Virus record (IMG/VR): IMGVR_UViG_3300046000_004086
Location: 1 to 20,741 of that record
From: a virus
Strand: one strand, 5' to 3'
DNA: 20,741 nt
Shown: one piece after another, positions 5,916 through 20,741 of the stretch
How the letters are laid out: each line of letters begins with the position of its first letter
How positions within the stretch are numbered: position 1 is the stretch's first letter
Made by a program: the position numbers and the translations under genes
Notes under the pieces: generated by a model
Database searches by the model: none
What the model was told of the DNA's origin: nothing
What the model saw: only the letters and a program-made list of their open reading frames with translations

Positions 5916-6172
5916 AGAGTTTTACCAACTGTTTCTAAAATAGTTTCCAGGGTTTCGTGATCCTGTTTCTCTTTGCCAAACTCGGCCTTGTGTGCCAGCT
6001 TGATGGCCTTCTTGAGAATAGCAGGCTTGATTTCTAGCTCTTCGGCCACAGCCTTCACAGTGTCAGTAAGTCCGCCATTGAGAGTTTCAATCTCGTGAAG
6101 AACCTGCATGCCTTCGTTGATGATCTGAGTGAGTTTGAGTTTTTGCTCGCCGTTGAATGTTTTGCTGCTCAT
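5912..6172 (-). CDS. dsbA: DsbA-like double-stranded DNA-binding protein
   Basis: This 86-aa helical protein resembles T4 DsbA (89 aa) in size, charge pattern and layout: an N-terminal helix, a central 'INEGMQVLHEIETL' helix, then AEELEIKPAILKKAIKLAHK (about 48-67), which aligns with the 'DELGVDGKMFNRLLALYHK' part of T4 DsbA, and an acidic tail. T4 DsbA binds dsDNA near late promoters and modulates late transcription. The start has the best ribosome binding site in the window, AGGAGG (complement of 6177-6182), and lies just below a near-consensus sigma70 promoter. The next gene overlaps it by four bases. Identification rests on short-protein similarity from memory, so it is likely but not certain. 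Confidence 0.62.
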   Translation of the reverse strand: MSSKTFNGEQKLKLTQIINEGMQVLHEIETLNGGLTDTVKAVAEELEIKPAILKKAIKLAHKAEFGKEKQDHETLETILETVGKTL

Positions 6173-7849: not shown

Positions 7850-8564
7850 CCAAATAATCTTGTTGGCTTGCTTGTTGAGCCTGTTGCTTCATTGCTCTGC
7901 GTTTTTGAAACAACTTTACTGCCATGTCAGCATGATCTAGTTTTTTAAATTTGCTGGGCATGGATCTATCACCTTGTCGCAGTTCAAATCCATCCTTTTC
8001 GTTGCCATAACATTCAAAGGTAACACCATATTCCATGGCGTAACTTTTTACCGGAGCAGATGATGTTTCTGACATGTCATTGATAGGCTGTTGTGGGTTG
8101 CCTAACTGAGTGTCTACTTTATCTTCAATGCCATGCACTGTGCTGGGATCTGTCAACTCGTAGTCATCTTCTTCAATTTCTTCTTCGGCTTGACCCTTTT
8201 CTATTGCGTCAACTGCTTTGTCTTTGAGTTCGCGGTCGACTCGAACTTTCTTTTCCAGTTGATCAAGATATTGTGTAAGGTCTTTCTTGACCTTGCTCAA
8301 CATATCTTCTTCAACTTCTTGCATGGCTTCTTCTAGTGCAGATTTTTTAGGCTCTACGGAATCACCTACCATGTATCCATCCATTGGATGTGCTGGATCT
8401 TTTTTGGCACGCAACGCAGGACTGGCTGATTTGGGTTTGAACAATGCCGGCAACTGCGGCACACCTTTTTGTTGTGTGTTAAGCCCATGCTTGACACCCA
8501 CCGGAGTAAGTTTGCCTTCTACTGCCGCAAGGCGTTCCAGTATTGATCTAATGTCTGAACTCAT
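7839..8564 (-). CDS. Conserved phage protein, acidic and helical, function unknown
   Basis: The 241-aa protein begins MSSDIRSILERLAAVEGKLTP, a short amphipathic helix. Residues 20-75 are a proline-containing linker (GVPQLPALFKPK, HPMDGYMVG). Residues 77-135 form a highly charged helix rich in Glu and Lys (EEAMQEVEEDMLSKVKKDL), likely coiled coil. Residues 172-225 look like a small alpha/beta domain (YGVTFECYGNEKDGFELRQG, then KKLDHADMAVKLFQKRR). I recall similar proteins only as hypothetical proteins of marine phages. Its ATG overlaps the Dps stop as ATGA, so it is translationally coupled to Dps; whether the proteins interact cannot be read. Confidence 0.8.
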   Translation of the reverse strand: MSSDIRSILERLAAVEGKLTPVGVKHGLNTQQKGVPQLPALFKPKSASPALRAKKDPAHPMDGYMVGDSVEPKKSALEEAMQEVEEDMLSKVKKDLTQYLDQLEKKVRVDRELKDKAVDAIEKGQAEEEIEEDDYELTDPSTVHGIEDKVDTQLGNPQQPINDMSETSSAPVKSYAMEYGVTFECYGNEKDGFELRQGDRSMPSKFKKLDHADMAVKLFQKRRAMKQQAQQASQQDYLDER

Positions 8565-9001
8565 GCTCTTTCTTCTTTCAGGTAACTTCTCAGCATCCAG
8601 CCATGCTTTTGATGAGCATCGATGCGTTCAGCAATGAAGTTAGCAATACCTTGCTGATTTTCTTCAGTTGCTACTTGGAAGACTTGATTGAGAAGATCCA
8701 GCATTTGGCCGTTGTTGGCCAGGAGTTCTTCTAGCATGAGTCGGGCACGTGGAATTTTTGTTTGGCCCTGTATTTTTGTTAATTCTACAAATCGTTCAAA
8801 ACTACCAGGAGCATAATCGCCCAAGGCACGTATGTATTCTGCTGTGGGATCTGTGGCACCATAAACATCGTCATGGATTGCGTCAAAGAAAGCGTGGAGC
8901 TGGCCAAAGTCTGGGCCTTCTACGTTCCAGTGGAACTGTTTGGCTTTTAAAGCAAAAGCTTCTTCAGTTGCCAGGAGTGTTTTTAAAGCGTCCGCTAACA
9001 T
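8561..9001 (-). CDS. dps: Dps-like ferritin (starvation DNA-protection protein)
   Basis: The 146-aa protein has the Dps signature. All four ferroxidase ligands are present with the spacing of E. coli Dps: H24 in FHWN, H36 in LHAFF, D51 and E55 in TDPTAEYIRALG (E. coli H51, H63, D78, E82). D40 matches the additional conserved acidic position. Dps forms 12-subunit shells that oxidise iron with hydrogen peroxide and store it, and many bind DNA. The start at 9001 is supported by the Dps N-terminus (MLADALKTLLATEEAFALKA) and an AAGGAAT element just upstream; the longer in-frame ATG at 9061 adds an unrelated basic stretch. There is no long basic N-terminal tail, so DNA binding by the classical route is doubtful. 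It overlaps the 70-aa gene upstream by 38 bases. Confidence 0.92.
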   Translation of the reverse strand: MLADALKTLLATEEAFALKAKQFHWNVEGPDFGQLHAFFDAIHDDVYGATDPTAEYIRALGDYAPGSFERFVELTKIQGQTKIPRARLMLEELLANNGQMLDLLNQVFQVATEENQQGIANFIAERIDAHQKHGWMLRSYLKEERA

Positions 9002-9176
9002 TCTTATTCCTTTTGTATTCCTTGGGCGTGTTAGGCGTAGGATCAGTTGTATATTTACCACTCAACAAGGATCCGCCTGATCTTGACACCATGCCTAATG
9101 CCTGGCTCACAGGTGCTATACTACCAGCACTGGTACCGCCCACTGACGCATTTTCCATAATTTCTTGAATTTTCAT
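8964..9176 (-). CDS. Small conserved phage protein (70 aa), function unknown
   Basis: This 70-residue protein starts MKIQEIMENASVGGTSAGSI and ends in a basic KEYKRNKNVSGRFKN tail. The N-terminal MKI-x-E-I-M-E-x-A pattern resembles the opening of other short phage proteins, and the Gly/Ser-rich middle suggests disorder. I take it as real because its ATG overlaps the preceding stop by one base (TAATG, 9174-9178), it bridges two clear genes in one operon and its tail looks composed, not random. Its last 38 bases overlap the Dps start in a different frame. Confidence 0.68.
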   Translation of the reverse strand: MKIQEIMENASVGGTSAGSIAPVSQALGMVSRSGGSLLSGKYTTDPTPNTPKEYKRNKNVSGRFKNTPGN

Positions 9177-9460
9177 TACAGTATTTCCAACTCGCCGCCA
9201 CTGTCTATCATGCCAGGACCATCAACCACACGCCAATTCAGCTGTTGTATCGACGCTAATGTTCCAGGCAATAATTCGTAGCGCAACTTGTACTTACCTG
9301 GTTCTCCGGCAATTTGGAAAGACTCTTCCAGGTGCTGATTGCGCCAGACCCATGTGCGTTCTGTAAACAATTCATTATTGACGTAAGCTCTGTAGGTTGG
9401 AGGATCAGTCCAGCCTTGGCAATAAACCTCGCAAATTACCTTGACAAACTTTTTGTTCAT
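9176..9460 (-). CDS. Small beta-rich phage protein, function unknown
   Basis: The 94-aa protein from the ATG at 9460 (MNKKFVKVICEVYC) has alternating hydrophobic strands and aromatic residues (RTWVWRNQHLEESFQI, KYKLRYELLPG, NWRVVDG), suggesting a compact beta-sandwich with possible ligand- or protein-binding role. An ATG at 9475 would add five residues. I prefer 9460 because a late-promoter-like octamer at 9466-9473 overlaps the longer version. No Shine-Dalgarno fits either. It is the first gene of the leftward Dps chain and diverges from the radical SAM operon. Confidence 0.7.
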   Translation of the reverse strand: MNKKFVKVICEVYCQGWTDPPTYRAYVNNELFTERTWVWRNQHLEESFQIAGEPGKYKLRYELLPGTLASIQQLNWRVVDGPGMIDSGGELEIL

Positions 9461-9465
9461 AAAGA

Positions 9466-9473
9466 TATTTATC
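9466..9473 (-). promoter_or_regulatory. Late-promoter-like octamer GATAAATA, leftward
   Basis: On the minus strand this is GATAAATA, one mismatch from TATAAATA. With T4 late geometry the start point would fall on the A of the ATG at 9460, giving a leaderless message for the Dps chain. Confidence 0.45.
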
Positions 9474-9485
9474 ATTAAGTGGGTC

Positions 9486-9493
9486 TATAAATA
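9486..9493 (+). promoter_or_regulatory. T4-type late promoter TATAAATA, rightward
   Basis: An exact TATAAATA lies only four bases before the ATG at 9498. With T4 geometry the transcript would begin at about 9499, so the radical SAM message would be leaderless or would use a slightly shifted start point. Confidence 0.6.
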
Positions 9494-9497
9494 TTGC

Positions 9498-10544
9498 ATG
9501 CTAAAACTGAATGATATACGCAAAGTACATGTGGAATTGACCACTAGATGCAATGCCAGATGCCCCATGTGCATGAGAAACTATCGAGGGTATGATTACA
9601 ACAGTGGGTACCCGTTATGTGAACTCAGTGTTGGGGATTTCAAGAAGATTCTAACTCCTGACGTTTTAGCACAGCTGATTCAACCTGACCCGCCTATTGG
9701 CGATCGTGTGCCAATCATATACGAATTTAGAGGTGTGGCGTTCAATGGAAATCTAGGTGATTTCGCTTCTGCACGTGATGCTGTTGAAATAGTAGAATAC
9801 CTGGTTGAGCACCGGGTACCTGTTATTATCAATACAAACGGATCAGTTCGCAGTCCAGAATGGTGGGCAAGACTGGCTCTACCCAAAGTTACAGTGGGTT
9901 TTGCTATTGATGGCCTAGCAGACACACATCATTTGTATCGCCAAGACACAGATTGGCATAGAATAATTTCACATGCTCAAGCATTAATTGACGCTGGTGG
10001 GCAAGCCATATGGAGATTTGTGCCATTTGATCACAATCGTCATCAGGAACAGGCCTGTAGAGACATGGCCGCACGAATGGGTTTTGCAAAGTTTGAAAAT
10101 ATCTACGATGGAAGAGACCGTACGTCGGTATACAATCGAGATGGCACCTTCAGTCACAAAATTGGTCCAGACCCTGGCAGTCTTACCAATCAAACAGTGC
10201 ATCCTTTTTTGGAAAGCCATATCACTTGGTACGACGCCAAAACAATCACACATCACAAAGATACCCCTGTACTAGACATGCAGTGTCATCACAAACGCAA
10301 TCGAGAAATATACATAGCCGCTGACGGTTCTGTTTATCCCTGTTGCTTTTTGGGATTTTACCCACACACCATGAATCATCCTGGCAACCAAGAATTGGCG
10401 CCGTTGGTAACAGAAAACAATGCATTGGAATATCCTCTTGAACACTGCCTTGAGTGGTTTGATCGTGTGGAACAAACATGGGATGCGGCCAGTATCTCTG
10501 CTGGTAGAACTTATCAGTGTGTGGTAACTTGCAATCAAACATGA
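9498..10544 (+). CDS. Radical SAM protein with SPASM-like C-terminal cysteines
   Basis: The 348-aa protein carries the CxxxCxxC iron-sulfur motif (C18, C22, C25 in TTRCNARCPMC) that binds the 4Fe-4S cluster and SAM. Later cysteines at 263, 282, 283, 317, 341 and 345, with the setting YIAADGSVYPCC, match the SPASM/twitch region that holds auxiliary clusters. Related proteins act on peptides, sugars or small metabolites; the substrate is not visible. The start at 9498 places HVELTTRCNARC at the normal distance from the N-terminus, and the longer in-frame ATG at 9441 would cross the divergent promoter and overlap the neighbour. It opens a four-gene operon with a methyltransferase and two glycosyltransferase-like genes. 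Confidence 0.9.
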   Translation: MLKLNDIRKVHVELTTRCNARCPMCMRNYRGYDYNSGYPLCELSVGDFKKILTPDVLAQLIQPDPPIGDRVPIIYEFRGVAFNGNLGDFASARDAVEIVEYLVEHRVPVIINTNGSVRSPEWWARLALPKVTVGFAIDGLADTHHLYRQDTDWHRIISHAQALIDAGGQAIWRFVPFDHNRHQEQACRDMAARMGFAKFENIYDGRDRTSVYNRDGTFSHKIGPDPGSLTNQTVHPFLESHITWYDAKTITHHKDTPVLDMQCHHKRNREIYIAADGSVYPCCFLGFYPHTMNHPGNQELAPLVTENNALEYPLEHCLEWFDRVEQTWDAASISAGRTYQCVVTCNQT

Positions 10545-11152
10545 ATAAAGATCTACAGCGATTTATGAGTCAGTTTTATCGACAGTCCATACAACCTAAA
10601 AATAGTGATCGTGGATTTAGCAGCTACGACGGCACTCAATATTTGAGAGATAACATAATTAAGTTGTTTGAAAAACACAGTATTCAAAGTGTATTTGATG
10701 CTGGATGCAATGATTGCGGATGGGCAAATGCTCTGGCGCAATATGTTGATTATCATGGCGGCGACATTGCTCCAGGATTAATTGCAGAAGCCTGGGCCAA
10801 TTGGCCAGACCTAGACATTCAAATTCACGACATTACTACAGATCCAATACCCAGTGTGGATGCAGTGTTAATGCGAGATGTTACTATACATCTAAGTCAT
10901 TCTGACAGACACAAAGTAATAAAAAATTGGATCAGCAGCGGAGTACCATGGATGTTAATGACACATTGTTTGGACCATAGTGAAAATATCATGTTTGATG
11001 AATACACAACCCAATTTCCAGTTTATCAAATAAACTGGAGCATAGAGCCGTGGAATTTTCCACAGCCAGTTGACTGCGCAAATGAAATGCCCGGTGGTAA
11101 CGGCCGTGTGTTAGGTCTTTGGCACAGAGATCAAATTATCAATTTGTTATGA
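10541..11152 (+). CDS. Class I SAM-dependent methyltransferase
   Basis: The 203-aa protein has motif I VFDAGCNDCG (51-60), the D-x-G-C type SAM loop, then YHGGDIAPGLI (71-81) with the acidic ribose ligand in GGDIA, and DAVLMRDVTIHLS (107-119) as motif II/post-II, similar to small-molecule and sugar methyltransferases. N-terminal residues 1-35 (FMSQFYRQSI, SDRGFSSYDG) probably cover the substrate site. The ATG overlaps the radical SAM stop as ATGA; an in-frame ATG at 10517 lies within the upstream gene and is rejected. The family is clear, but the acceptor is unknown. Given the neighbours, O-methylation of a sugar is a reasonable inference. Confidence 0.85.
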   Translation: MNKDLQRFMSQFYRQSIQPKNSDRGFSSYDGTQYLRDNIIKLFEKHSIQSVFDAGCNDCGWANALAQYVDYHGGDIAPGLIAEAWANWPDLDIQIHDITTDPIPSVDAVLMRDVTIHLSHSDRHKVIKNWISSGVPWMLMTHCLDHSENIMFDEYTTQFPVYQINWSIEPWNFPQPVDCANEMPGGNGRVLGLWHRDQIINLL

Positions 11153-12018
11153 CTGTAGCAAGAGTATTGTTCCTAGCACGATATCGTGTGCCACATGCGT
11201 GTTTTGCCATGCAGTGGGACCATAATTTACTGGGTATAGATTACACCATAATAGCGTCACCAGTGCCGCAACATGAACTGTGGCCAGTGTTTGAACGCTA
11301 TGGTATTGATACTTCACGGTTAAAATACATGAATGACAGTGTGATATACGAACAGTATCCTGAAGTCAACAACTGGGTGTTCGACAATGACTATCGAGGT
11401 TGGTGGTTGCGACAACAAGCAATCAAACTGGCCTACAGAGACCTGTTGGAAGAAGATGTCATACTCATGCATGACTGTGACACTTTTATGATTGAACCTT
11501 ATAGATGTTGGGATGGTGAACAATTGAATTATCTTGTGATACCTGACACCAAACACGGCAGCTATAATGGGGTATTTGAAAGTATTACTGGATTGCCAGA
11601 AGCCAGCCCGCATTGTTTTGTAACAGAACTAGTGCCTGTACTGCGCACACACTGGCTTGAATTGCGCAAACTGTTGGCTCAACGTTGGCCTGACAAACTG
11701 TGGCTGGACGCTATCATTGACGCTGTTCCTGGCATGCCCACAATACCCCCCTGGGGCACAGGCGAAATAATCAAATGGTTTTCAGAATATGAATTGATAG
11801 GAAACTGGGCAGCATGTTGTGATTCCATCAACTACACTTTTCAGAAACGTTTTGAATACAATAAATTGGAGCTGTTGTCTACATTGAATGCCAGGGAATT
11901 CAATTCAGTTTGCGATGCTGTGCCCGACCTAAGTCAAAGCATGCAACTTGATTGGGACACATTGGACATACCCAACTTTGAACATTATCAACACATGGTA
12001 AAGCAATGTACACAATGA
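11149..12018 (+). CDS. Glycosyltransferase-like protein (DUF6492-like), with DxD-type motif
   Basis: The 289-aa product resembles GT-A-fold glycosyltransferases of the DUF6492 kind. Residues 85-115 hold WWLRQQAIKLAYRDLLEEDVILM followed by HDCDTFMI; the D-x-D (D109-C-D111) fits metal/nucleotide-sugar binding. A later SYNGVFESITGLP and PPWGTGEIIKWFSEYE could form the acceptor side. A homologous arrangement is seen in the minus-strand gene at 14431-15276. The ATG overlaps the methyltransferase stop as ATGA; the longer ATG at 11119 is inside the previous gene. Sugar donor and acceptor unknown. Confidence 0.75.
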   Translation: MTVARVLFLARYRVPHACFAMQWDHNLLGIDYTIIASPVPQHELWPVFERYGIDTSRLKYMNDSVIYEQYPEVNNWVFDNDYRGWWLRQQAIKLAYRDLLEEDVILMHDCDTFMIEPYRCWDGEQLNYLVIPDTKHGSYNGVFESITGLPEASPHCFVTELVPVLRTHWLELRKLLAQRWPDKLWLDAIIDAVPGMPTIPPWGTGEIIKWFSEYELIGNWAACCDSINYTFQKRFEYNKLELLSTLNAREFNSVCDAVPDLSQSMQLDWDTLDIPNFEHYQHMVKQCTQ

Positions 12019-13133
12019 CATATCCAGCAAAGTTCCGATATCCTGTGTATCAGCCTGCATCACAAAGCATTGATGTCACAGCTGACTGGGGTCAGGGTAG
12101 ATTTGAAACTACCAATGATCCTGCGTTAGCACTGAGTCAGCCCTGGTCTGTGGCAGCAGTTCGTGTGCTGTGCAACGAGCCCGGCGTGTTTGATTATGAT
12201 CCAGCATTGGCTGACATGGATCTCAGCCAGTTTGATTTGGTACTGCTAAGTGACATTGAATACTACAGTGTTAAAGAAATACGTGCCTGGATTGGAAAAA
12301 ACAAAATTCAACGTTATGTGTTGGCCCTGGGCGGTCTTGTGCAAGGAGAAGAATTGGATCAGTCCTGCATGGTATATCGCCCTTGGTGGGCTTACAATCT
12401 CTTACGACACAACGAATACCAAGACACTTATCAAGATCAAAAACCCTACATGTTTGAAGCACTGTTAGGAGCACGTAGACCGCACCGTGACTATGTGATG
12501 ATGGCCATGGACAAAACTGCACTGTTGGATCGTAGCATTGTGACCTACAGAGACTGCTTTGAAGGCAAATTGATTGACAGAAACTGTGATCAATTTCAAC
12601 AGACTTTTTATGACACTCCGCTAAAGTGGCCTTACGTGAGTGCAAACTTAGATCCTGCATGGGAAGTCACACACAACATCACTCGCAGTATCAGTCCTTA
12701 TGTGCCTTGGAACATCTATCAACGCAGTCATTACAGCATTGTTTGTGAAACACTGGGCACTGGCACAACATTTTTCTGGAGTGAAAAAGTTACCAAGTGT
12801 TTGCTGGCCAGAAGAATTTTTGTGTTTTTTGGCGCACAAGGATTTCTCGCTCGCATGCGCGAACTGGGGTTTGAAACATTTAGCAGTATCCTTGACGAAA
12901 GCTACGATGAACATCCTGTTGACAGCATAAGATTTGAACGTGCCATGCATCAGGTATTGCAGTTGGCGTATTTTGAAAATCCCAAAGTGCTGTACGAACG
13001 CATACAAACCATATTGGATCACAATCAATCTAGATTGCGCAGTTACCAGATTCAATTTCAAGCCACAATGTCTGATCTACTGCATCAACACATCGAAGGC
13101 GGGCATTGGTTATGGGATGACGAAGTGAGTTGA
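12015..13133 (+). CDS. Glycosyltransferase-like protein (GT10/fucosyltransferase-like C-terminus)
   Basis: The 372-aa protein begins at the ATG at 12015, overlapping the previous stop as ATGA; the ATG three codons upstream (12006) is also possible. The central FEALLGARRPHRDYVM (about 147-162) and the C-terminal HYSIVCET followed by FFWSEKVTKCLLARRIFVFFG (about 239-273) and LARMRELGFETF are recognisable: the E-T-x(n)-S-E-K-x-x-K-x-L-L-A pattern resembles the nucleotide-binding region of GT10 and related GT-B enzymes. The N-terminal half (DLSQFDLVLLSDIEYY, RYVLALGG) fits a first Rossmann-like domain. Last gene of the plus operon; its final 24 bases overlap the convergent SGNH-like gene, so there is no room for a terminator. 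Confidence 0.72.
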   Translation: MTYPAKFRYPVYQPASQSIDVTADWGQGRFETTNDPALALSQPWSVAAVRVLCNEPGVFDYDPALADMDLSQFDLVLLSDIEYYSVKEIRAWIGKNKIQRYVLALGGLVQGEELDQSCMVYRPWWAYNLLRHNEYQDTYQDQKPYMFEALLGARRPHRDYVMMAMDKTALLDRSIVTYRDCFEGKLIDRNCDQFQQTFYDTPLKWPYVSANLDPAWEVTHNITRSISPYVPWNIYQRSHYSIVCETLGTGTTFFWSEKVTKCLLARRIFVFFGAQGFLARMRELGFETFSSILDESYDEHPVDSIRFERAMHQVLQLAYFENPKVLYERIQTILDHNQSRLRSYQIQFQATMSDLLHQHIEGGHWLWDDEVS

Positions 13134-13925
13134 AATGTGCTGATAGAAGTTTTCAGCAATTTTTTCCTGTCCTTCGGGGCCAGAATGATATCCAGGATCG
13201 TCTCCTGAAAATGGGTAACTGCCGCATATGGCTTGAGGACTTTTAGTTGTGTCTAGCTGTATGAAGTGATCAGGGATAAGTTTTGGAAACGCATCACGCC
13301 ATAGGTTATGATTGTCAGGATCAAATGGCCACAGCAAGTTGGGCAACACCAAGAACTGGATGTCATCTAGGAACATAGAGATCACACCTTCGCGAATCAT
13401 CCACTCATCCTGTTGCTTTTTCCAAGCATTGTCGTAGATTGAATCAATCCAGTGCCGTATGCCGTTCTGCGCTTGTTTGGTAATGCGGCCCTGTCTGTAG
13501 GGATGATCAAAGTTTTCTGCAAGAGTAAAAATAGTTTCACAAATCATGTTTGACGGTTCCCGACCATAGTTTACATTGCGGATGCCATCTTGTCTATTGT
13601 AGCCATTGCCCAGTTTTCTATTTTGTAAGTGACGCTCTAGTGGAGGGTTTTCTCCGGCACTGGGTGCTTGAGTCCAGTCGTAGGGCACTGAATTGGCAGG
13701 TATTTCCATACGATCCCAAAAGGTAGGACCAATCACAGCAAAGTCTGGACGCTGTCTGCGTATTTCATCTATCTGTATGCGTATGCCGCCGTTTGAACAG
13801 CCTTGGCGTGCCAGGTTGACCAATTCCCAGCCACCTAGTTTTTCAGCCAGACGTTCACTCCAAGCAGTGCCTGGCAAAGTTTGACTTACGGCCGAAAACG
13901 AGCAGCCTGCTACCATTAATTTCAT
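13110..13925 (-). CDS. SGNH/GDSL hydrolase-like protein
   Basis: The 271-aa protein shows SGNH blocks: MVAGCSFSA (4-12) as block I with candidate nucleophile Ser9 (a G-C-S variant of the usual G-D-S), NLARQGCSNGGI (37-48) supplying the block II Gly and block III Asn, FAVIGPTFWDRME (62-74) as the strand before the oxyanion area, and DPGYHSGPEGQ (243-253) as block V with His247. In the standard family the last acid and base are D-x-x-H; here D243 and H247 are four apart. Such enzymes remove or add acyl groups on sugars and lipids. Its ATG overlaps the deacetylase stop as ATGA. Ester hydrolysis or acyl transfer on a glycan is inferred from context. Confidence 0.73.
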   Translation of the reverse strand: MKLMVAGCSFSAVSQTLPGTAWSERLAEKLGGWELVNLARQGCSNGGIRIQIDEIRRQRPDFAVIGPTFWDRMEIPANSVPYDWTQAPSAGENPPLERHLQNRKLGNGYNRQDGIRNVNYGREPSNMICETIFTLAENFDHPYRQGRITKQAQNGIRHWIDSIYDNAWKKQQDEWMIREGVISMFLDDIQFLVLPNLLWPFDPDNHNLWRDAFPKLIPDHFIQLDTTKSPQAICGSYPFSGDDPGYHSGPEGQEKIAENFYQHISTHFVIP

Positions 13926-14434
13926 AGTGTTTCCTTGTAACTGTTTTGATGTTCTTTGCTGTGAAAACTAGCAATAATTTCTTTGTGCATGGGCAATTCA
14001 TCTAGTGTGTATGTGCCGGACGGAATTGTATATGTAACTCCTTCACCAGGTCGTGCAAATGTCACCAGTCGAGGATGCCACTGCACTGCACGATGTACCA
14101 GCACATGATGTATGTGTCCGTAGTCACCCAGTTCGTCATGTGTGAGCACTAGATCATAGTCACGAGCCAACTGCCAACAGGCCCGTTCAGCGGATTCTTC
14201 AGGCCAGCGTGTGAACACCTTTTGTTCGTTGTCATGCCAGTGATCTTCAAATCCCAAGAACACACATTCAATGCCACGCTGTTTCCAAAATGTTGAAAGT
14301 TCCGCACCACGTGGATCTTGCGCAGTGTAAGTTAGGTACCCAATGGTCCAGTTGTGCTCGGGATGTGCATGAATGTAACTGTAGCCAAATATCACACAGT
14401 CATCTGGATGCGCTACCAAACACAATGCGTTCAT
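13922..14434 (-). CDS. PIG-L/LmbE-family N-acetyl-sugar deacetylase
   Basis: The 170-aa protein has the zinc motif AHPDD (8-12) directly after the first strand and a second motif GHIHH (106-110) in THDELGDYGHIHHVLVHRAV. In PIG-L/LmbE/MshB enzymes the AHPDD His and second Asp plus the last His of G-H-x-x-H bind zinc, and the first Asp of the pair is the general base. All are kept here (H9, D11, D12, H110). At about 170 aa it is shorter than most members (200-300 aa), a compact core version. These enzymes remove the acetyl group from N-acetylglucosamine-type sugars on lipids, thiols or antibiotics. It sits between a glycosyltransferase-like and an SGNH-like gene, joined to both by four-base overlaps. 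Confidence 0.88.
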   Translation of the reverse strand: MNALCLVAHPDDCVIFGYSYIHAHPEHNWTIGYLTYTAQDPRGAELSTFWKQRGIECVFLGFEDHWHDNEQKVFTRWPEESAERACWQLARDYDLVLTHDELGDYGHIHHVLVHRAVQWHPRLVTFARPGEGVTYTIPSGTYTLDELPMHKEIIASFHSKEHQNSYKETL

Positions 14435-15276
14435 TCCAGATCCCAGGCCACACTTTGGCCGCGATCAATCAGCAGCATCTTAAATGCAGTTTTTTGTTCT
14501 GGTAACATTTTTGACCAAGCATTTCGATGAATACTTACTGTAAGAGTATTTTTATCACGCATGAGTTCAAGTTTCTTTTGAATCAGATCAACTTCGCTGT
14601 GACAAACATTAACTATTGTTCCAATTGAATTGTGTTCAGTATAAAAATGATCTAGGGTGCCATATTTGTATTGGCAGAATCCCGAGTACAGCATGAATTC
14701 TGTCAGCATGCCTTGACGCTGAAACCATGTGGGAAAACTTTCACGTGTTTTGATTGTGGTATCAGCAATCATAAAGCGTACTGTGTCATTGTGAAAAAAG
14801 AACGGCACACCACCTGGACCAGCTTGTTTGGTCATGTTGATATCAAACAACTGATCCACAATGTCTTTGCTGGGTTTAAACACATCAAACACATTCATTT
14901 GTCCCACAGTAAGCTGACCATTCTCGTTGACCAATTTGGATATTTCCAAGGGTCTAACAAATATAGTCTTGGCGTCCAAGACCATGGTATAAACATTGTA
15001 ACTTATAGATGCAGTAAGAAGTTTTAGAGCCTGTTGACTTACCCAGCCGTTTTCTACCCAGGTACTGCTGAATGCTGTGCGTGGCACCACCAAGACTGAA
15101 CTTGCTAGATCTCCCCACCATGCAGGATCAATTTTTTCCGCTAGGGTTTCGTAATCATTGAGAACCACATAGATATTTCTTATACCTATGTTGCGACAAT
15201 GGTTGTGTATGCTTTGTGCCTGAATTTTAAGGATCGGCAATTCCTGTTCAAATACTACTGTGCAGATATCAATCAT
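14431..15276 (-). CDS. Glycosyltransferase-like protein (DUF6492-like), altered DxD
   Basis: The 281-aa protein resembles the plus-strand gene at 11149-12018 in layout: NIYVVLND (34-41), then NGWVSQQALKLLTASISYN (76-94) and VYTMVLDAKTIFVRPL (95-110). In GT-A enzymes the D-x-D or D-x-N sits at that point; here it reads L-D-A-K, so one acidic residue is replaced by Lys and metal binding may differ. QMNVFDVF (125-132) and GGVPFFFHNDT (154-164) may form the rest of the active site. It is first in a three-gene minus-strand set with the deacetylase and the SGNH-like protein. Identification is by pattern and parallel with its neighbour, so moderately sure. Confidence 0.68.
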   Translation of the reverse strand: MIDICTVVFEQELPILKIQAQSIHNHCRNIGIRNIYVVLNDYETLAEKIDPAWWGDLASSVLVVPRTAFSSTWVENGWVSQQALKLLTASISYNVYTMVLDAKTIFVRPLEISKLVNENGQLTVGQMNVFDVFKPSKDIVDQLFDINMTKQAGPGGVPFFFHNDTVRFMIADTTIKTRESFPTWFQRQGMLTEFMLYSGFCQYKYGTLDHFYTEHNSIGTIVNVCHSEVDLIQKKLELMRDKNTLTVSIHRNAWSKMLPEQKTAFKMLLIDRGQSVAWDLE

Positions 15277-15309: not shown

Positions 15310-15666
15310 TTATTTTCCGGCGGCAAACAATGCAGCGCCGCGATTGAAACTGTCGCTCCAGCTTGCGGGTTGTCGGCCACTGCGCTTTTGACTCCAGGCA
15401 TATCCTGCTCTGTGACCAGAGCAGTCTTTGGTACATTGTGAACCCAGAAAACTTAATTCACGCAGTTGCTCGCGTGTCCACTTGTCAGGAATTGTGCCGT
15501 GTTTTTTCACAAACTCGTCGTGCAATTGTTTGCCGGTAATGCCGTAGTCACGAGCAATGGTCTGCATCATGTGATCAATTGCACTGTAGCTCTTGGGATC
15601 ATCTAGATCTTTCTCCAAGTCTTCTACTGCACCTTCTTTCAACTGTGCAAACTCGTGTGCTCTCAT
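15310..15666 (-). CDS. Conserved phage protein with CxxxC-type C-terminal module
   Basis: The 118-aa protein opens MRAHEFAQLKEG, similar to the MRANEFVTENF opening of the gene at 17157-17750. Residues 27-62 (SAIDHMMQTIARDYGITG, then LHDEFVKKHGTIPDKW) look like a small helical domain. Residues 74-118 (SQCTKDCSGHRAGYAWSQ, then SWSDSFNRGAALFAAGK) form a second unit with a C-x-x-x-C-x-x-H cluster that could bind metal. I recall both units as recurring separately in marine phage proteins of unknown role. The ATG overlaps the stop of the 495-aa gene as ATGA. Confidence 0.78.
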   Translation of the reverse strand: MRAHEFAQLKEGAVEDLEKDLDDPKSYSAIDHMMQTIARDYGITGKQLHDEFVKKHGTIPDKWTREQLRELSFLGSQCTKDCSGHRAGYAWSQKRSGRQPASWSDSFNRGAALFAAGK

Positions 15667-17150
15667 TTTTTAGGTTGTACTGCGGTTGGTACATTCCGGT
15701 ACACACGCTTGTTGGGATCATACACAGTTTTCAACGGACCCAAGCCAGCTAGTTTCTTAACTCTGGCAACCATGGCTTGATAGTCGTCACCGTAGTCGGC
15801 TTCTTTTTCTTTGGGGGCTGTTTCATTTAATCGTGCCAACTGTTGTTTGATACTGTTAATTTGATTTTGAATTCCTTTTTGTTGGGTCCAAACTCTGTAA
15901 TCATCACTGTATTCAAAAGAAGGGTCATATTGTTTTTCTAATTCTTGTAGCTTTGCCTGAAGAGTTGCTTGTTCGTCTGACATATTTTGTTCTTCCAATT
16001 TACCAGAATTGTGTGCTTTCCATGCAGTGGCGTAAGCAATGCCTTTTTCTTTGTCGGTTATTTTGCCGTCTTTGGCATAGGATTTTTTAATGTGCCGGAC
16101 CATGCGTTCTGCTTTGTCGCCAGGCGGTGCTTCTTCTGCTACCCCTTCGTTCATTTGCTTCAGCAGTTCTTGTGCTTTTTCAACGCTAATCAAGAACCTA
16201 CCAAAGCGATCAGGATTAGCGGCTTTTTGTAGATATTCTTTGCTGAATCCTTGTGGAGCTTCTGCTTTTGCAGGAGCTGTGTCAGTTGCTTGTTGCGTTG
16301 CAATAGGCTTGCCGGTCAAGCGGTTGATGCCAGGATCATCGCCGGGCATGACTCTAGCACTGGCACCACCTGCGCCCATGGCCATAGTTCCTGCTAACGC
16401 AGCAGCACCTAATGCACTTTTCCATCCTTCGTCAAGCTCGCCTTCCGCCACACCTTGTGATTCAAAATTATCTATATTTCTAGAAACTCTACGCTCACTG
16501 CCTTGAGAAGGGAATCCTGAACTTTGTGATTGCGGCGCAGGTCTTCCTGGGGCATACTTAGATAACTTTTCAGTGGCTTTTTCTCTAGCAATAGTCATCC
16601 ACATTTGTTGTTGTCTGCGATCAATAGGCTGGCCACGTGTGGCAACTATTTGTTCATAGATTGCTCGTGCCATTTCCTCTATGTCTTTATTGTGTTGCAC
16701 ACGAGGATCATCTTGACGCATGTTTTGGAATTCTCTTGAAACATCAACGGGACGCGATTGTGCCATTGCAGATCCAGCCGCACCTGCCACAGCCGCCGCA
16801 CCCAAGCCTTTTAAGAATCCTCTACGGTCTATCTCTTCTAATGAGCCTTCCGCCACACCTTTTTTCTTGTTTAACACTTTGTTTAGAATCTTTTCACCAT
16901 GTTTGGCTACTTTTTCAGGTGTGGTTGCTTTGGCAGTGTATTCTTTCTTGCCGGCGTCTGAATCGTTGCTGCCATCACGGCCTGGAGGAGTTTGTGATTT
17001 GTCCATTTCATTGACTGATTCAGCAGGCACACAGTTGTTCACACGAGTGCCGCCCTTCATTTTGGTCTTGGGATTGCCAATCTTTTTGCCGGTCCAGCAT
17101 TTGGGGTCCAGGCGCACTTTTTCTTCAGTAAATAGGTCGTTGAGATTCAT
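15663..17150 (-). CDS. Mosaic phage protein with three GVAE modules and an internal Tat-like segment
   Basis: This 495-aa protein appears to be a string of short units. Residues 11-42 (RLDPKCWTGKKIG to RVNNCVP) hold two cysteines. Residues 47-95 are charged and disordered. GVAEG at 98-102 leads into IDRRGFLKGLGAAAVAGAAG and AMA-Q (128-131), a Tat-signal look-alike but internal. Residues 145-205 are helical. A second GVAEG at 233-237 leads into LDEGWKSALGAAALAGTMAM and an Ala/Gly stretch to 265. A third, GVAEE (336-340), is followed by APPGDKAERMVRHIKKSYAK and a helical unit to about 385. Residues 390-445 are coiled-coil-like. The last 45 residues form another basic unit. Function unknown; a virion or cell-envelope role is a guess. 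It follows the acetyltransferase gene by six bases. Confidence 0.8.
   Translation of the reverse strand: MNLNDLFTEEKVRLDPKCWTGKKIGNPKTKMKGGTRVNNCVPAESVNEMDKSQTPPGRDGSNDSDAGKKEYTAKATTPEKVAKHGEKILNKVLNKKKGVAEGSLEEIDRRGFLKGLGAAAVAGAAGSAMAQSRPVDVSREFQNMRQDDPRVQHNKDIEEMARAIYEQIVATRGQPIDRRQQQMWMTIAREKATEKLSKYAPGRPAPQSQSSGFPSQGSERRVSRNIDNFESQGVAEGELDEGWKSALGAAALAGTMAMGAGGASARVMPGDDPGINRLTGKPIATQQATDTAPAKAEAPQGFSKEYLQKAANPDRFGRFLISVEKAQELLKQMNEGVAEEAPPGDKAERMVRHIKKSYAKDGKITDKEKGIAYATAWKAHNSGKLEEQNMSDEQATLQAKLQELEKQYDPSFEYSDDYRVWTQQKGIQNQINSIKQQLARLNETAPKEKEADYGDDYQAMVARVKKLAGLGPLKTVYDPNKRVYRNVPTAVQPKK
16356..16454 (-). repeat. GVAEG/Ala-rich module, copy 2 (495-aa protein, residues 233-265)
   Basis: The unit reads GVAEG, LDEGWKSALGAA, then an Ala/Gly/Met-rich hydrophobic stretch. 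It is closest to the copy in the lysin-type gene (18509-18598): both have L-[DE]-E-x-W-K-S-A-L and A-M-A-M-G-A. Confidence 0.75.
16440..16456 (-). repeat. 17-base exact repeat, copy A
   Basis: GCCTTCCGCCACACCTT on the plus strand recurs exactly at 16845-16861. It encodes the GVAEG core with one preceding codon part. Identity at the third codon positions suggests recent or maintained relation of the two modules at DNA level. Confidence 0.85.
16758..16859 (-). repeat. GVAEG/Ala-rich module, copy 1, Tat-signal look-alike
   Basis: Residues 98-131 of the 495-aa protein read GVAEG, then DRRGFLKG, an Ala/Gly/Val hydrophobic core and A-M-A before Gln. Twin Arg at 109-110, F-L-K, a core of about 15 residues and an A-x-A cleavage-like site are all features of Tat signals, but the segment starts 97 residues into the protein. 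The 17-base repeat copy B is at 16845-16861. Confidence 0.75.
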
Positions 17151-17156
17151 GATAGT

Positions 17157-17750
17157 TTATTTATTGCGTTTGGCTTTAGCACGTCCGGCCTTCATGTTGG
17201 CCATCCAGTGAGCTAATTGCCCTTTGCGACCGCCTTGTTTGGCCACTTTACGCAGGGTGCCAACTGACGCTTTGGTGGGCACACCGTGTCGCTTTGAATC
17301 GCCTTTGTCCTGCGGATTACGCCCATCAGCAAAGTTTTCGTTTAAGCCCGTTAATTCTTGTTCACCCTGTGGTGTCAAGAACCAAAAACCATCCCCAGGA
17401 GTAACAATTGACCCAGCATTTTCCAAGCTATCGTAAACATTTTGTTGTGCATCGGTAATACCGCGGATGTCTTGTTGAAAATCCAACCCGTGATTGTTGG
17501 CAACATCAATTGCTTTCATCAACAGCAATTTACCGTAACCTTGTCCTTGCCAACGTGATTCAACTTCTGCTTCATTGTTGACATCATCTGTATCAGCGCC
17601 TCGTACAAAATTAAAATGTCCTACGTATTTTCCATGCACTGCAAGTGTTATTTGAAAACTGTGTGTGTACCCATCAGGTGTAGTAACTGTAAATTTTACA
17701 GGATTCCGGCCATCAGCAAAGTTTTCTGTTACAAATTCATTTGCTCTCAT
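17157..17750 (-). CDS. GNAT-type acetyltransferase with basic C-terminal module
   Basis: The 197-aa protein has a GNAT core at about 18-125. Strands ITLAVHGKYVGHFNF lead to AEVESRWQGQGYGKLLLMKA (61-80), which contains the acetyl-CoA pyrophosphate loop Q68-G-Q-G-Y-G73 and the following helix. The end of the core (VYDSLENAGSIVTPGDGFWFL) fits the last helix and strand. GNAT enzymes pass an acetyl group from acetyl-CoA to an amine; the substrate is unknown. The core is bracketed by two copies of ENFADGRNP (9-17 and 138-146). The second begins a separate basic unit (150-197: KRHGVPTKASVGTLRKVA, RKGQLAHWMANMKAGR) that looks able to bind nucleic acid. The ATG overlaps the lysin-type gene stop as ATGA. 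Confidence 0.8.
   Translation of the reverse strand: MRANEFVTENFADGRNPVKFTVTTPDGYTHSFQITLAVHGKYVGHFNFVRGADTDDVNNEAEVESRWQGQGYGKLLLMKAIDVANNHGLDFQQDIRGITDAQQNVYDSLENAGSIVTPGDGFWFLTPQGEQELTGLNENFADGRNPQDKGDSKRHGVPTKASVGTLRKVAKQGGRKGQLAHWMANMKAGRAKAKRNK
17158..17165 (-). promoter_or_regulatory. Possible late-promoter-like octamer AATAAATA
   Basis: On the minus strand this is AATAAATA, one mismatch from TATAAATA, overlapping the acetyltransferase stop codon and seven bases before the ATG of the 495-aa gene. The placement resembles the two octamers near 9466-9493, but a chance match is quite possible. Confidence 0.25.
17313..17339 (-). repeat. ENFADGRNP repeat, copy 2
   Basis: This encodes ENFADGRNP at residues 138-146 of the acetyltransferase. 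It shares a 17-base exact core, CCATCAGCAAAGTTTTC (plus strand), with copy 1 at 17700-17726. Confidence 0.85.
17700..17726 (-). repeat. ENFADGRNP repeat, copy 1
   Basis: This encodes ENFADGRNP at residues 9-17 of the acetyltransferase, just before the GNAT core. The two copies bracket the core at about 360 bases distance. Confidence 0.85.
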
Positions 17751-20741
17751 AGCACCGCCATATATTCTTTAAATTTATTGTGTCGCTGTTGCACCACATG
17801 TGTTGGTTCACCAGCATTGATGGCCTTTACAACTTCAATTGTATTGTTGAAGTTCTTCACATTGGGTCTAACTTGATTTTTCCAGAACCATAATGCAATT
17901 TGAGCACCCACATCCAGTTTGCTGGCCAACTCAGGATTTTTTACCAATCTGTCATCGCCAAATATTTGCTTGCTTGCTCGAGTGTAATTGTCTCGTCCGG
18001 TAAGTTGAATAAACCCACGCCCTTTAAATAGTTCGCCATCACCTTTGACTTTGTTGCCCAGTTGTTTGGCCAGTTTGGGTTTTTCATACTTGGCAAATCT
18101 TTGTTTACTGCCCACTTCCTTCATCTTGGAAAAGTCCCAGCTTTCATGTCTGGTCTGTGCCATGAACTGTGCCAGTTCTACACCTCGAAGTCCTGCGGCC
18201 TTGGCAGCAGTTTGAAGCGCGGCCTCGGCGTCACTGTTCATGCTTAACAATGTGACTTCGCTATCTTGTGCGGGTGAAACTTTTGATGTGGCTGGCTGTG
18301 CAACTTTAGTAGGCAGCGGTTTCACTGTGGATTTTGCCGCAGCAGGTTTTGAATAGTCGGGCACTAGAACCTTTTGTCCTATTTCCAATTTGGTATTACG
18401 ATCCATCTTGTTTAGTTTGAATATCTCTATTGGATTCACATTATTTTGTCTTGCTATGCTGTACACTGTGTCACCTGGTTCAACTGCCTGGCGAACTATT
18501 TCAGGAACTTTTGCACTTGCACCCATGGCCATTGCACCGGCCATTGCACCTGTTGCCAATGCAGATTTCCAGTCTTCTTCTAATTCTGCCACACCTTCTG
18601 TCATGATGGGATACACTTCAAAGCCTTCGCCTGACACACCCCGGCCATTGTTACGCAGCCATTGTGCAGCCACTCTGTTGGCATCTGATTGATTGTTGCC
18701 CACGCCTGAGAATCTGTAAACTTCTTCACCGTTTACTAACACCTTCCAAGCACCAGAGAACGTGCCGGGTGTGGCTCGTTGTTGTGCCAAGTCTGTTGTG
18801 CTTCCAGGGTAGATTACCTCTATATCTGGTTCAATGTCAATAATACCACTTTGTTCAGCATCTGATCTAGAACCTTCTCTAGTTCTTACTACAAAGTCGC
18901 TGGGATTGTAACCGGTTAGGCTTAACCACAGTCTTGCTTCTGTCTCTGCGGCTGCGCGGTTTGTTTGCTGGGGATTAAAGTAAACTTGGTTATTGCTTCT
19001 ACTAGCCAATTCCCAAGGTCCAGGACCAGTTGGTCTCAAAGGGTTCACATCTGTTTGGCCTGCATCTGCAGGCCGATCCCATTGTTCAGTGTCCACCACC
19101 ATGTAGTCAGCAGCAACTAAATTGTTTCTAGCAGCCCAGGCTTGGAGAACATATCTACCTTGCGCTTGCTCTGCTGGATTACCCATGTTGAATCTAAACT
19201 GATAGTCAGGCGTGACACCGCGTGATTGGCCATACAAGGCTGGATCTGAGCGTGGCACAATAGCATAGCGACCATTAGGATCATTAGGTCTGCCGGGTGG
19301 AGCAGGAGGGCTGGTGAAGGCACTGGCGGTGTCGTCACTGTCAGTAGATCGAACACTAAAAACCGCTGCGGCGTCTTGTGCGCTCATTCCGTGTTGACCA
19401 TGATTGACATAATCTTGCAACCTGGTCAACTGATCTGCTGTATTGCGAGGCGAGAATTCAGTATCTGGCACAGCCTCACCTGTTTGTTTGTTATAGAGTT
19501 CATGTGTTCCTGAACCAGACTTTTCTTCGTATGGACGCACAGGTTCGGCCACAATGGATTGTCGGGTGTTAGCCCAAGACGGATAGCCATCATCGCCCAA
19601 GGCTTTTTCAATGGCTTCTTCCTTACTTGACGCAACAACTTCTACACTGGCATAACTATTGCCAGGATTGGAAACGTTCCACCACATCTTTTCACCGCTT
19701 GTTTTGCCACGTTTTTCTTTGCGTTGCAGTTGTGCTTGTTTCACAAAACTACGCAAGGCTGCCCGGGGAATCTTGCCAGCCACATAGTCAGCAAAGTATT
19801 TGATGGTGTCTGACCCTTTTTGGTCTTGAGTCAATAGTTTGTACAGTTTCTTTTGGTATTCTTCTCGGTAGGCTTCAGGGTTGAGTGCCGCACTCATGGC
19901 CACTGTGAAACGCAACAGGGTGTTTTCAATCTTGTCAAAGTTGTCATCCAGCCAATCGCCGCCTGGTGAGCGGAATTCAATATGTCCGTCTTTGGTGTTG
20001 ATTGATGTGTATTTGTCTGTGTAACCTCCGTGAATGGCTTTGGAAGCCAGTTCGCCCATTTGGCCTTTCATCTTGTCCAACAATTGCTGTGCTTCTTCGG
20101 GTCGTTGTCGCACACGATCACGCACCTTGCCTAGTGCAGATTTGGCGTAGGTATTTGAACTACGTCCAAATTGTTTGAGCACATACTCGTCGCCTAACAA
20201 CAGGGCCAGTTTCACAAAGTCCAGCTTGTCCAAGCTGTATTCAGGCACAGAAATGTTGATGTGCAGGCCAGTTGAACTGTTGGTATAAACGCCCATGCGT
20301 CCAGCCCAGGTCTTTACAGCATTCAAATCTTTCAAGAGCTCGTCAATAGGCATGGGCGGGCTCACAAACTCCAGGCCTTCGTCGCCGTCATTGTCGCCTT
20401 CTAAACTGCCGTCTGGTTCCACTATATAAAACTGATTGTTGGGTCCAGGTCTGTCGCCTGACTGATGGTATCTTGTGTTCACTCGCACTTCACGGCCCAC
20501 AGCCTGACTGAATTCATCTGCTACCTGATCTGCATCAATCTCACCGGTGTTTATCATAGTCCAGTACGGCCAACTTATCTCGTAGGCGTTTTCAACGCCA
20601 CTCATGACATCAAGGTCTTCGGCGTCTAGCCAGTCGCTCTCGTCGTAATTGTCTTGATTTTCTTCCCGCCATTCATCAAACGCCTGTTGATAATAATCAC
20701 TAGAAGGATCAGCGTCTACATTGGCTGCAAATTCCTTCTCT
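17747..20741 (-). CDS. Amidoligase-like / LysM / GH19 lysin fusion protein, 5' end outside window
   Basis: The frame stays open from the right edge (at least 998 codons), with no in-frame start in the first 45 codons before Met at 20605, so the gene begins outside the window. Numbering from that Met: residues 1-250 resemble the amidoligase family (ATP-dependent COOH-NH2 ligase, glutamine-synthetase-like fold), with GLEFVSPPMP (77-86), STGLHINISV (111-120) and HIEFRSPGGDW (208-218). Residues 305-360, 464-506, 538-577 and 618-667 look like small diverged alpha/beta repeats. A GVAE/Ala-rich module lies at 670-699. LysM is at about 708-750 (PGDTVYSIARQNNVNPIEIF). A GH19 chitinase/lysozyme-type domain fills 795-952, with AQTRHES (candidate Glu821 and Glu830) and GRGFIQLTGRDNY (862-874). 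It probably binds and cuts peptidoglycan; the ligase-like part is unexplained. Confidence 0.85.
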   Translation of the reverse strand, partial: EKEFAANVDADPSSDYYQQAFDEWREENQDNYDESDWLDAEDLDVMSGVENAYEISWPYWTMINTGEIDADQVADEFSQAVGREVRVNTRYHQSGDRPGPNNQFYIVEPDGSLEGDNDGDEGLEFVSPPMPIDELLKDLNAVKTWAGRMGVYTNSSTGLHINISVPEYSLDKLDFVKLALLLGDEYVLKQFGRSSNTYAKSALGKVRDRVRQRPEEAQQLLDKMKGQMGELASKAIHGGYTDKYTSINTKDGHIEFRSPGGDWLDDNFDKIENTLLRFTVAMSAALNPEAYREEYQKKLYKLLTQDQKGSDTIKYFADYVAGKIPRAALRSFVKQAQLQRKEKRGKTSGEKMWWNVSNPGNSYASVEVVASSKEEAIEKALGDDGYPSWANTRQSIVAEPVRPYEEKSGSGTHELYNKQTGEAVPDTEFSPRNTADQLTRLQDYVNHGQHGMSAQDAAAVFSVRSTDSDDTASAFTSPPAPPGRPNDPNGRYAIVPRSDPALYGQSRGVTPDYQFRFNMGNPAEQAQGRYVLQAWAARNNLVAADYMVVDTEQWDRPADAGQTDVNPLRPTGPGPWELASRSNNQVYFNPQQTNRAAAETEARLWLSLTGYNPSDFVVRTREGSRSDAEQSGIIDIEPDIEVIYPGSTTDLAQQRATPGTFSGAWKVLVNGEEVYRFSGVGNNQSDANRVAAQWLRNNGRGVSGEGFEVYPIMTEGVAELEEDWKSALATGAMAGAMAMGASAKVPEIVRQAVEPGDTVYSIARQNNVNPIEIFKLNKMDRNTKLEIGQKVLVPDYSKPAAAKSTVKPLPTKVAQPATSKVSPAQDSEVTLLSMNSDAEAALQTAAKAAGLRGVELAQFMAQTRHESWDFSKMKEVGSKQRFAKYEKPKLAKQLGNKVKGDGELFKGRGFIQLTGRDNYTRASKQIFGDDRLVKNPELASKLDVGAQIALWFWKNQVRPNVKNFNNTIEVVKAINAGEPTHVVQQRHNKFKEYMAVL
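18509..18598 (-). repeat. GVAE/Ala-rich module, copy in the lysin-type protein
   Basis: Residues 670-699 (from Met 20605) read EGVAELEEDWKSALATGAM, then A-G-A-M-A-M-G-A-S-A-K. The unit sits directly between the repeat region and LysM, and parallels the module at 16356-16454 in the neighbouring gene. Confidence 0.75.
18605..19216 (-). repeat. Three diverged tandem protein repeats
   Basis: Residues 464-506, 538-577 and 618-667 each show a strand (YQFRFNMG, NQVYFNPQ, WKVLVNGEEVYRF), a helix with A-x(n)-A-x-x-W or L-W (AQGRYVLQAWAARNN, AAAETEARLWLSLTG, SDANRVAAQWLRNNG) and a closing strand (DYMVVDT, DFVVRTR, GFEVYPI). Similarity is by pattern only. Confidence 0.55.

What the first reader, a model, noticed from the sequence alone, without database searches (positions are those of the whole stretch)
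17747..20741. One polypeptide combining an amidoligase-like domain with LysM and a GH19 lysin
Amidoligase-family enzymes form amide bonds with ATP, while LysM plus GH19 bind and cut peptidoglycan. A protein that could both make an amide link and degrade the wall is odd. One inference is that the ligase part modifies peptidoglycan peptides or attaches the protein covalently to a virion or wall component. The size (at least 998 codons) fits a virion-associated entry lysin better than a simple endolysin, and no holin-like gene is next to it.
Basis: partly seen in the sequence, partly recalled or inferred. Interest (0 to 1): 0.65.

Follow-up and report, generated by a model that had tools for sequence, protein, structure and literature searches.

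The report
Cassette polyprotein packed in phage heads
The odd "ligase plus wall-cutting enzyme" is the tail end of a giant phage protein made of swappable parts, which looks built to be packed in the virus head, cut apart there by the phage's own protease, and injected into the host as a set of separate enzymes.

Summary
It is not one bifunctional enzyme. IMG/VR relatives show it is the 3' part of a 560-2560 aa cassette polyprotein of T4-like jumbo phages: NTase, HExxH protease, amidoligase with beta-beta-alpha-beta repeats, then swapped cassettes (deaminase, ADP-ribosyltransferase, GNAT, GH19). In 32 of 49 relatives with complete 3' ends the protein stops where the window's amidoligase module ends; fused ones mostly continue with a small hxE linker. 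Module boundaries fall on [ILVM]xE, close to published T4 gp21 sites: 57 of 104 close module copies have it exactly at the junction, against a 1.6% background. Neighbouring and standalone modules begin MRAxEF(I/V)xE, like T4 internal-head-protein targeting sequences, and a relative encodes the gp21-type protease. I infer head packaging, cleavage at hxE and ejection as separate enzymes. Sec/Tat-like signals sit directly after hxE in several cassettes, including LysM-GH19, so cleavage might unmask export signals (hypothesis). The amidoligase has a glutamine-synthetase fold; its substrate is unknown.

The parts
17747..20740 (-). 3' part (997 codons) of the cassette polyprotein, 5' end cut by the contig
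19718..20740 (-). amidoligase (GS-fold) domain, residues 1-341; active-site residues E108, E124, H160, E255, R257 present; the ExE of the first strand lies upstream of the contig end
18605..19717 (-). about five beta-beta-alpha-beta units joined by disordered linkers (residues ~342-712); copy number differs between relatives
18575..18604 (-). junction MTEGVAELEE (residues 713-722): natural end of the amidoligase module followed by [ILVM]xE sites (MTE, VAE, LEE)
18512..18574 (-). signal-peptide-like segment DWKSALATGAMAGAMAMGASA directly after the LEE site
18359..18484 (-). LysM domain
17750..18196 (-). GH19 lysin domain; putative catalytic E866 and E875 (HES...KE, nine apart) invariant in the eight aligned modules
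17157..17750 (-). next cassette as its own gene: targeting-like start MRANEFVTE|N, GNAT-like domain, basic tail ENFADGRNPQDKGDSKR...; the same cassette is fused in frame into the polyprotein in L016
15663..17150 (-). second cassette protein (MNLNDLFTEE start) with an internal Tat-like signal (SLEEIDRRGFLKGLGAAAVAGAAGSAMA) and a Sec-like signal (ELDEGWKSALGAAALAGTMAMGAGGASA), both after hxE
15310..15666 (-). small protein with targeting-like start MRAHEFAQLKE|G
   Evidence: its relative
8964..9176 (-). 70-aa ORF with targeting-like start MKIQEIMENAS, upstream of a Dps/ferritin-like gene

Best explanation
The ORF is the 3' part of a cassette polyprotein of a T4-like jumbo phage, of the 'polyvalent protein' kind. 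SHOWN by sequence: complete relatives run NTase - HExxH protease - GS-fold amidoligase - repeat units - exchangeable C-terminal cassettes; cassette borders coincide with [ILVM]xE; many of the same cassettes occur as separate genes starting with MRAx[E/D]F...xE, and then the hxE of the start and the hxE of the linker fall at the same place relative to the module; a relative has a gp21-type S77 prohead protease and a gp23-type capsid protein. INFERRED: the MRAxEF starts target the proteins to the prohead core as T4 capsid targeting sequences do; the prohead protease cuts at hxE, so that amidoligase-plus-repeats and LysM-GH19 become separate proteins in the mature head; they enter the host with the DNA. 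HYPOTHESIS: in cassettes with a Sec- or Tat-like signal after hxE (LysM-GH19 here), cleavage makes the signal N-terminal, so the injected enzyme could be re-exported to the periplasm and act on peptidoglycan from inside early in infection. The amidoligase would act in the cytoplasm on an unknown substrate. The confidence given covers the polyprotein, cleavage and head-packaging reading; the signal-unmasking step alone is about 0.4.
For: Architecture and cassette swapping in 48 non-redundant NTase-headed proteins, all with HExxH, 41 with amidoligase. 32 of 49 relatives with complete 3' ends stop at the ...VxPxM end of the amidoligase module; most fused ones continue P[IV]M[TASN]E. Homology breakpoints near [ILVM]xE: 503 of 1111 against 259.6 expected, while ten other residues in place of E give ratios 0.73-1.14. 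Module after a targeting-like start compared with the same module internal: hxE exactly at the junction in 57 of 104 contexts (>=60% identity), 0-11 at offsets of 1-4, background 1.56% per position. 55 of 549 non-redundant ORFs in these loci start MRAx[E/D]F, like T4 IpII/IpIII MKTYQEFIAEA; T4 CTS function is in PMC9026906 and the Alt sites ITE-6 and LTE-619 in PMC5694885. S77 protease 2e-24 and gp23 7e-98 in the 364-kb relative. Of 21 internal signal-like segments in cassette proteins, 18 lie within 12 aa after hxE (null 17%). Minimal form in L075 9362-10072: targeting-like start, IDE|GWRDW, signal-like segment, GH19. Separate endolysin in G001. GS fold: VIA-align Z 9.9, rmsd 3.7 over 166 residues, top rows all glutamine synthetases.
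Against: No virion proteomics, no cleavage data, no activity: packaging and processing rest on motif statistics. Related sequences are not independent, so z-scores overstate the strength. The window's own junction (MTE, VAE, LEE) has M or V at P3 for two of three sites, whereas the T4 sites quoted in PMC5694885 are ITE and LTE. A loose CTS motif is not significantly enriched over the whole 364-kb genome (9 against 4.8 in shuffles); the strict form stands out only around this locus. The window record itself holds no protease or capsid gene (20.7-kb fragment). Why a phage would inject a secreted lysin at the start of infection is not explained.
Confidence: 0.72

Rival explanations
1. Polyprotein processed not by the prohead protease but by its own N-terminal HExxH metallopeptidase, before or after injection, as proposed in general for polyvalent proteins.
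For: All 48 NTase-headed relatives keep an HExxH-type motif; Iyer et al. 2017 propose self-processing by zincin-like domains.
Against: The boundary motif is hxE, which matches published T4 gp21 sites; it is the same in separately encoded cassette proteins that lack the metallopeptidase.
Confidence: 0.12
2. The LysM-GH19 part is made as a separate secreted lysin by internal translation start (for example ATG at residue 713), so the fusion is only apparent.
For: M713 lies 10 residues before the signal-like segment, and internal starts are known in other endolysins (abstract of PMC12203907).
Against: No Shine-Dalgarno-like stretch before M713, and L044 and L060 have no ATG/GTG/TTG within 25 codons upstream of the same segment while the hxE is kept.
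Confidence: 0.1
3. One reading: a single virion enzyme in which the ligase modifies peptidoglycan or anchors the protein while LysM-GH19 cuts the wall during entry.
For: The domains are adjacent in one frame, and an independent amidoligase...GH19 fusion exists in L115.
Against: The domains occur apart in nearly all relatives and the junction is a standard module border; the module after the amidoligase is often something else, such as a deaminase, ADP-ribosyltransferase or GNAT.
Confidence: 0.05
4. A tail-associated lysin or an ordinary endolysin that has by accident been fused to the upstream gene.
For: GH19 endolysin families match this part well.
Against: A separate GH19 endolysin lies beside a spanin-like gene in G001; the module recurs with targeting-like starts and hxE linkers in several loci.
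Confidence: 0.06

Closest known systems
Polyvalent proteins (Iyer et al. 2017, PMC5512222)
   Same: Large multi-domain proteins of phages with disparate enzymes (NTase, zincin, GNAT, ADP-ribosyltransferase, ParB-like, lysozyme) in changing combinations, predicted to be injected with the DNA.
   Different: The main text does not mention LysM or signal peptides and no amidoligase was found in it by the words searched; it explains processing mainly by embedded peptidases. Here boundaries carry hxE sites fitting the T4-type prohead protease, and the family lies in T4-like jumbo phages.
T4 internal proteins IpI-III and Alt (CTS plus gp21 cleavage)
   Same: Short N-terminal targeting sequence M-K/R-x-x-E-F-h-x-E, cleavage at hxE, variable cargo.
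   Different: T4 cargo is one module per gene; here several modules are strung together with repeated hxE linkers, and some carry export-signal-like segments after the site.
Amidoligase_2 (PF12224), free-standing homologue in Agrobacterium phage Atu_ph07
   Same: GS-fold domain with ExE, E, E, H and ExR residues.
   Different: Atu_ph07 has it as a protein of its own (500 aa) near portal and prohead genes; here it is part of a polyprotein with added repeat units.
GH19 endolysins (phrog_181; PWe2 endolysin 9ms7)
   Same: GH19 domain with the HE...E pair.
   Different: Joined to LysM and a signal-like segment inside a polyprotein, in phages that can also have a normal GH19 endolysin.

Membership tests
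Polyvalent proteins | two or more domains of disparate biochemical activity in one polypeptide | tested here: met
Polyvalent proteins | variable domain combinations among relatives | tested here: met
Polyvalent proteins | delivered into the host with the DNA | not testable with these tools
   only inferred from targeting-like starts and hxE sites
T4-type internal head proteins | N-terminal capsid targeting sequence ending in hxE | tested here: inconclusive
   seen in neighbours and in standalone amidoligase and GH19 relatives; the window protein's own start is missing; the NTase-headed starts (M-N-I-x-E) are only roughly similar
T4-type internal head proteins | phage has a gp21-type (S77) prohead protease | tested here: met
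   found in 2 of 6 records of relatives, the two longest; not testable in the window fragment
T4-type internal head proteins | cleavage in proheads and presence in virions | not testable with these tools
   needs proteomics
Amidoligase_2 / GS-fold ligases | family score above the curated cut-off | tested here: met
   26.5 bits against 22; up to 40.5 in relatives
Amidoligase_2 / GS-fold ligases | GS fold | tested here: met
   AlphaFold2 pLDDT 76, pTM 0.51; Z 9.9, rmsd 3.7, 166 residues, all top rows glutamine synthetases; Foldseek alone weak, 7e-3
Amidoligase_2 / GS-fold ligases | conserved metal and ATP ligands | tested here: met
   ExE (27/29, at least 90%), E238, E254, H290, E385, R387 invariant in A1; the mapping to GS residues is from general knowledge; the first motif is outside the window
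GH19 lysins | GH19 domain with catalytic glutamates | tested here: met
Canonical endolysin | sits in a lysis cassette with holin/spanin | tested here: not met
   no such neighbour of the module in the window; the lysis-type GH19 plus spanin-like pair lies elsewhere in G001

The most novel reading that the evidence does not exclude
Prohead-protease cleavage both frees the cassettes of a head-packed polyprotein and unmasks Sec/Tat signals, so that a phage injects enzymes into the cytoplasm which then re-export themselves to the periplasm: a two-step, cut-to-activate delivery route from virus head to host envelope.
Probability: 0.38. Interest if true: 0.82.

Novelty: new variant of a known kind. 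Interest (0 to 1): 0.62.

Why it matters
It would extend the T4 internal-protein principle (one targeting tag, one effector) to a modular system in which environmental jumbo phages assemble and exchange whole strings of effectors behind one protease motif. It gives a simple rule for finding unknown phage effectors: cut predicted proteins at MRAxEF...hxE starts and hxE linkers. The export-signal idea would show how a phage can address injected proteins to a second compartment of the cell.

Tried and rejected
Loose CTS motif over the whole 364-kb genome: 9 against 4.8 expected, not informative. PF00182 over whole records under-reports the phage GH19 (none in G001, although PHROGs finds an endolysin family at 7e-77). 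PDB sequence search with the amidoligase profile gave only coiled-coil noise. Fold search of the repeat region: no match better than E 0.67; pTM 0.26, so no fold is claimed. The genome-contig scan gave one fragment in a Burkholderiaceae MAG (L095, perhaps phage DNA), not followed. HTH_Tnp_1 match inside LysM (0.0015, below cut-off) is taken as chance. Internal translation start for the lysin: not conserved. DNA repeats at linkers: only short or diverged ones in the window, so no claim of homologous recombination at linkers. The deaminase pattern failed (zero hits where Pfam finds the domain), so deaminase counts are not quoted from it.

Full report
OBSERVATION. Window 17747-20740 (-) is one open frame of 997 codons plus stop that runs off the contig end. 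The record is a 20,741-base IMG/VR virus fragment. Pfam finds Amidoligase_2 (69-261), LysM (753-794) and GH19 (849-959), each above its curated cut-off.

WHAT IS MISSING UPSTREAM. Relatives in IMG/VR supply the absent 5' part. L010, 97% identical over the shared stretch, encodes 1466 aa: an N-terminal nucleotidyltransferase-like domain, a metallopeptidase motif (HELAHCRQ), the complete amidoligase domain beginning GAIAGMEFEMIVPG, repeat units, then a deaminase and a basic tail in place of LysM-GH19. A search with the N-terminal part gave 38 loci, whose proteins span 562-2560 aa with different C-terminal cassettes: cytidine deaminase, ADP-ribosyltransferase, GNAT, M48 peptidase and ParB-like domains, and GH19 with or without LysM. 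Of 48 non-redundant NTase-headed proteins all have an HExxH-type motif, 41 the amidoligase, 3 a GH19. The amidoligase subfamily alone had 274 confirmed stretches in IMG/VR.

THE BORDER BETWEEN LIGASE AND LYSIN. In 32 of 49 non-redundant relatives with a complete 3' end, the protein ends within 12 aa of the final ...V-x-P-x-M of the repeat region. The window has ...EGFEVYPIM|TEGVAELEE|DWKSALATG.... Where relatives run on, the next residues are of the same kind: PIMTESVTES, PIMTEGLAES, PVMSESIAEG, PVMAESLQE, PVMSEDDLEEGW. L115 is a second amidoligase...GH19 fusion, with a different GH19 and no LysM, apparently formed separately. LysM-GH19 itself sits behind other modules in L015, L042-L045 and L061. 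So ligase and lysin are exchangeable neighbours, not one enzyme.

A CLEAVAGE-SITE GRAMMAR. I took homology breakpoints between non-redundant proteins of these loci: 503 of 1111 lie within 8 residues of [ILVM]xE against 259.6 expected; with D, Q, K, R, N, S, T, G, A or P in place of E the ratio is 0.73-1.14; with G, A, N or S after the E the ratio is about 3. Second test: modules that directly follow a targeting-like start in one gene were located inside other proteins; at 60% identity or more, 57 of 104 internal contexts have hxE exactly at the junction, 0-11 at offsets 1-4, background 1.56% per position. The later peak at offsets 5-7 is a conserved motif inside the amidoligase module (DLFEINM). 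Clear cases: MRASEFITE|AFDQPYK in L043 and ELPE|AFDQPYK in L016; MRANEFIVE|SDERA in L015 and ANEFIVE|SDERA inside L003/L102, where the old gene start is still readable in the fusion. Sequences are related, so I use the contrasts between motifs and offsets, not the z-scores, as evidence.

LINK TO T4. T4 IpII and IpIII start MKTYQEFIAEA; ten residues suffice for packaging, targeting resting mainly on positions 4 and 7 and processing on 8 and 10 (PMC9026906). T4 Alt is cut at ITE-6 and LTE-619 (PMC5694885). In the loci here 55 of 549 non-redundant ORFs begin MRAx[E/D]F (or MKA), mostly followed by (I/V/L)xE, including a small GH19 protein (L075); standalone amidoligases also do so (MRALDFILE|N in L157). 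The 364-kb relative has a gp21-type S77 protease and a gp23-type capsid protein, whose N-terminus holds LKE|NASSGS. Head packaging and cleavage are inference from this.

EXPORT SIGNALS. Signal-like segments inside cassette proteins lie just after hxE: 18 of 21 internal ones within 12 residues, against 17% for random positions; they fall into at least a WKSAL-type Sec-like and a RRGFLK-type Tat-like group, with copies that are not independent. An internal signal peptide would be useless unless cleavage made it N-terminal. An internal translation start does not explain it in general, since L044 and L060 have no usable start nearby. This is why I propose signal unmasking, at about 0.4. The Pfam TAT_signal scores (18.1-22.3 bits against 22.7) stay under the curated cut-off.

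THE ENZYMES. The amidoligase alignment keeps ExE, E, E, H and ExR, and the model aligns to glutamine synthetases with Z 9.9 over 166 residues, rmsd 3.7, all top rows being GS or GS-like; Foldseek alone is weak. Viral predicted structures named 'amidoligase enzyme' from uncultured Caudovirales match at 2.5e-39. The substrate is unknown. The GH19 keeps its HE...E pair. The repeat region is modelled as small beta-beta-alpha-beta units with no PDB match; pTM is low. G001 has a separate GH19 endolysin next to a spanin-like gene, so the cassette lysin need not be the lysis enzyme.

COMPARISON. Polyvalent proteins (PMC5512222) are the closest kind; searches of that text found no LysM and no signal peptide, and it proposes release of domains by embedded peptidases. 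Literature searches in the held library found no description of hxE-linked cassette polyproteins or unmasked export signals in T4-like phages; subscription papers are mostly not held. I class this as a new variant of a known kind.

Noticed in passing
window 15663-17150 (-): Second cassette protein with both an internal Tat-like and an internal Sec-like segment, each after hxE; 940 aa in L010 and 495 aa in the window, so it too exchanges modules.
   Followed up: partly
window 8561-9061 (-): Dps/ferritin-like protein (PF00210, 1e-23) next to a 70-aa ORF with a targeting-like start; possibly another head-packed protein.
   Followed up: no
window 9441-15276: By eye: a cluster with a radical-SAM-like gene (CNARCPMCMRNY), methyltransferase-like, glycosyltransferase-like and PIG-L-like deacetylase genes between the cassette genes and the Dps gene.
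   Followed up: no
window 5912-6172 (-): Transcription-regulator family match (phrog_639, 4e-9; weak DsbA match in Pfam), fitting a T4-like phage.
   Followed up: no
L010 4018-4770 and relatives, N-terminal ~250 aa of the polyprotein: Nucleotidyltransferase-like domain present in all complete NTase-headed polyproteins (phrog_36119, 5.5e-45); function unknown.
   Followed up: partly
L095 1-204: Fragment of the same amidoligase family in a Burkholderiaceae MAG, perhaps a phage contig binned with its host and a hint at the host group.
   Followed up: no
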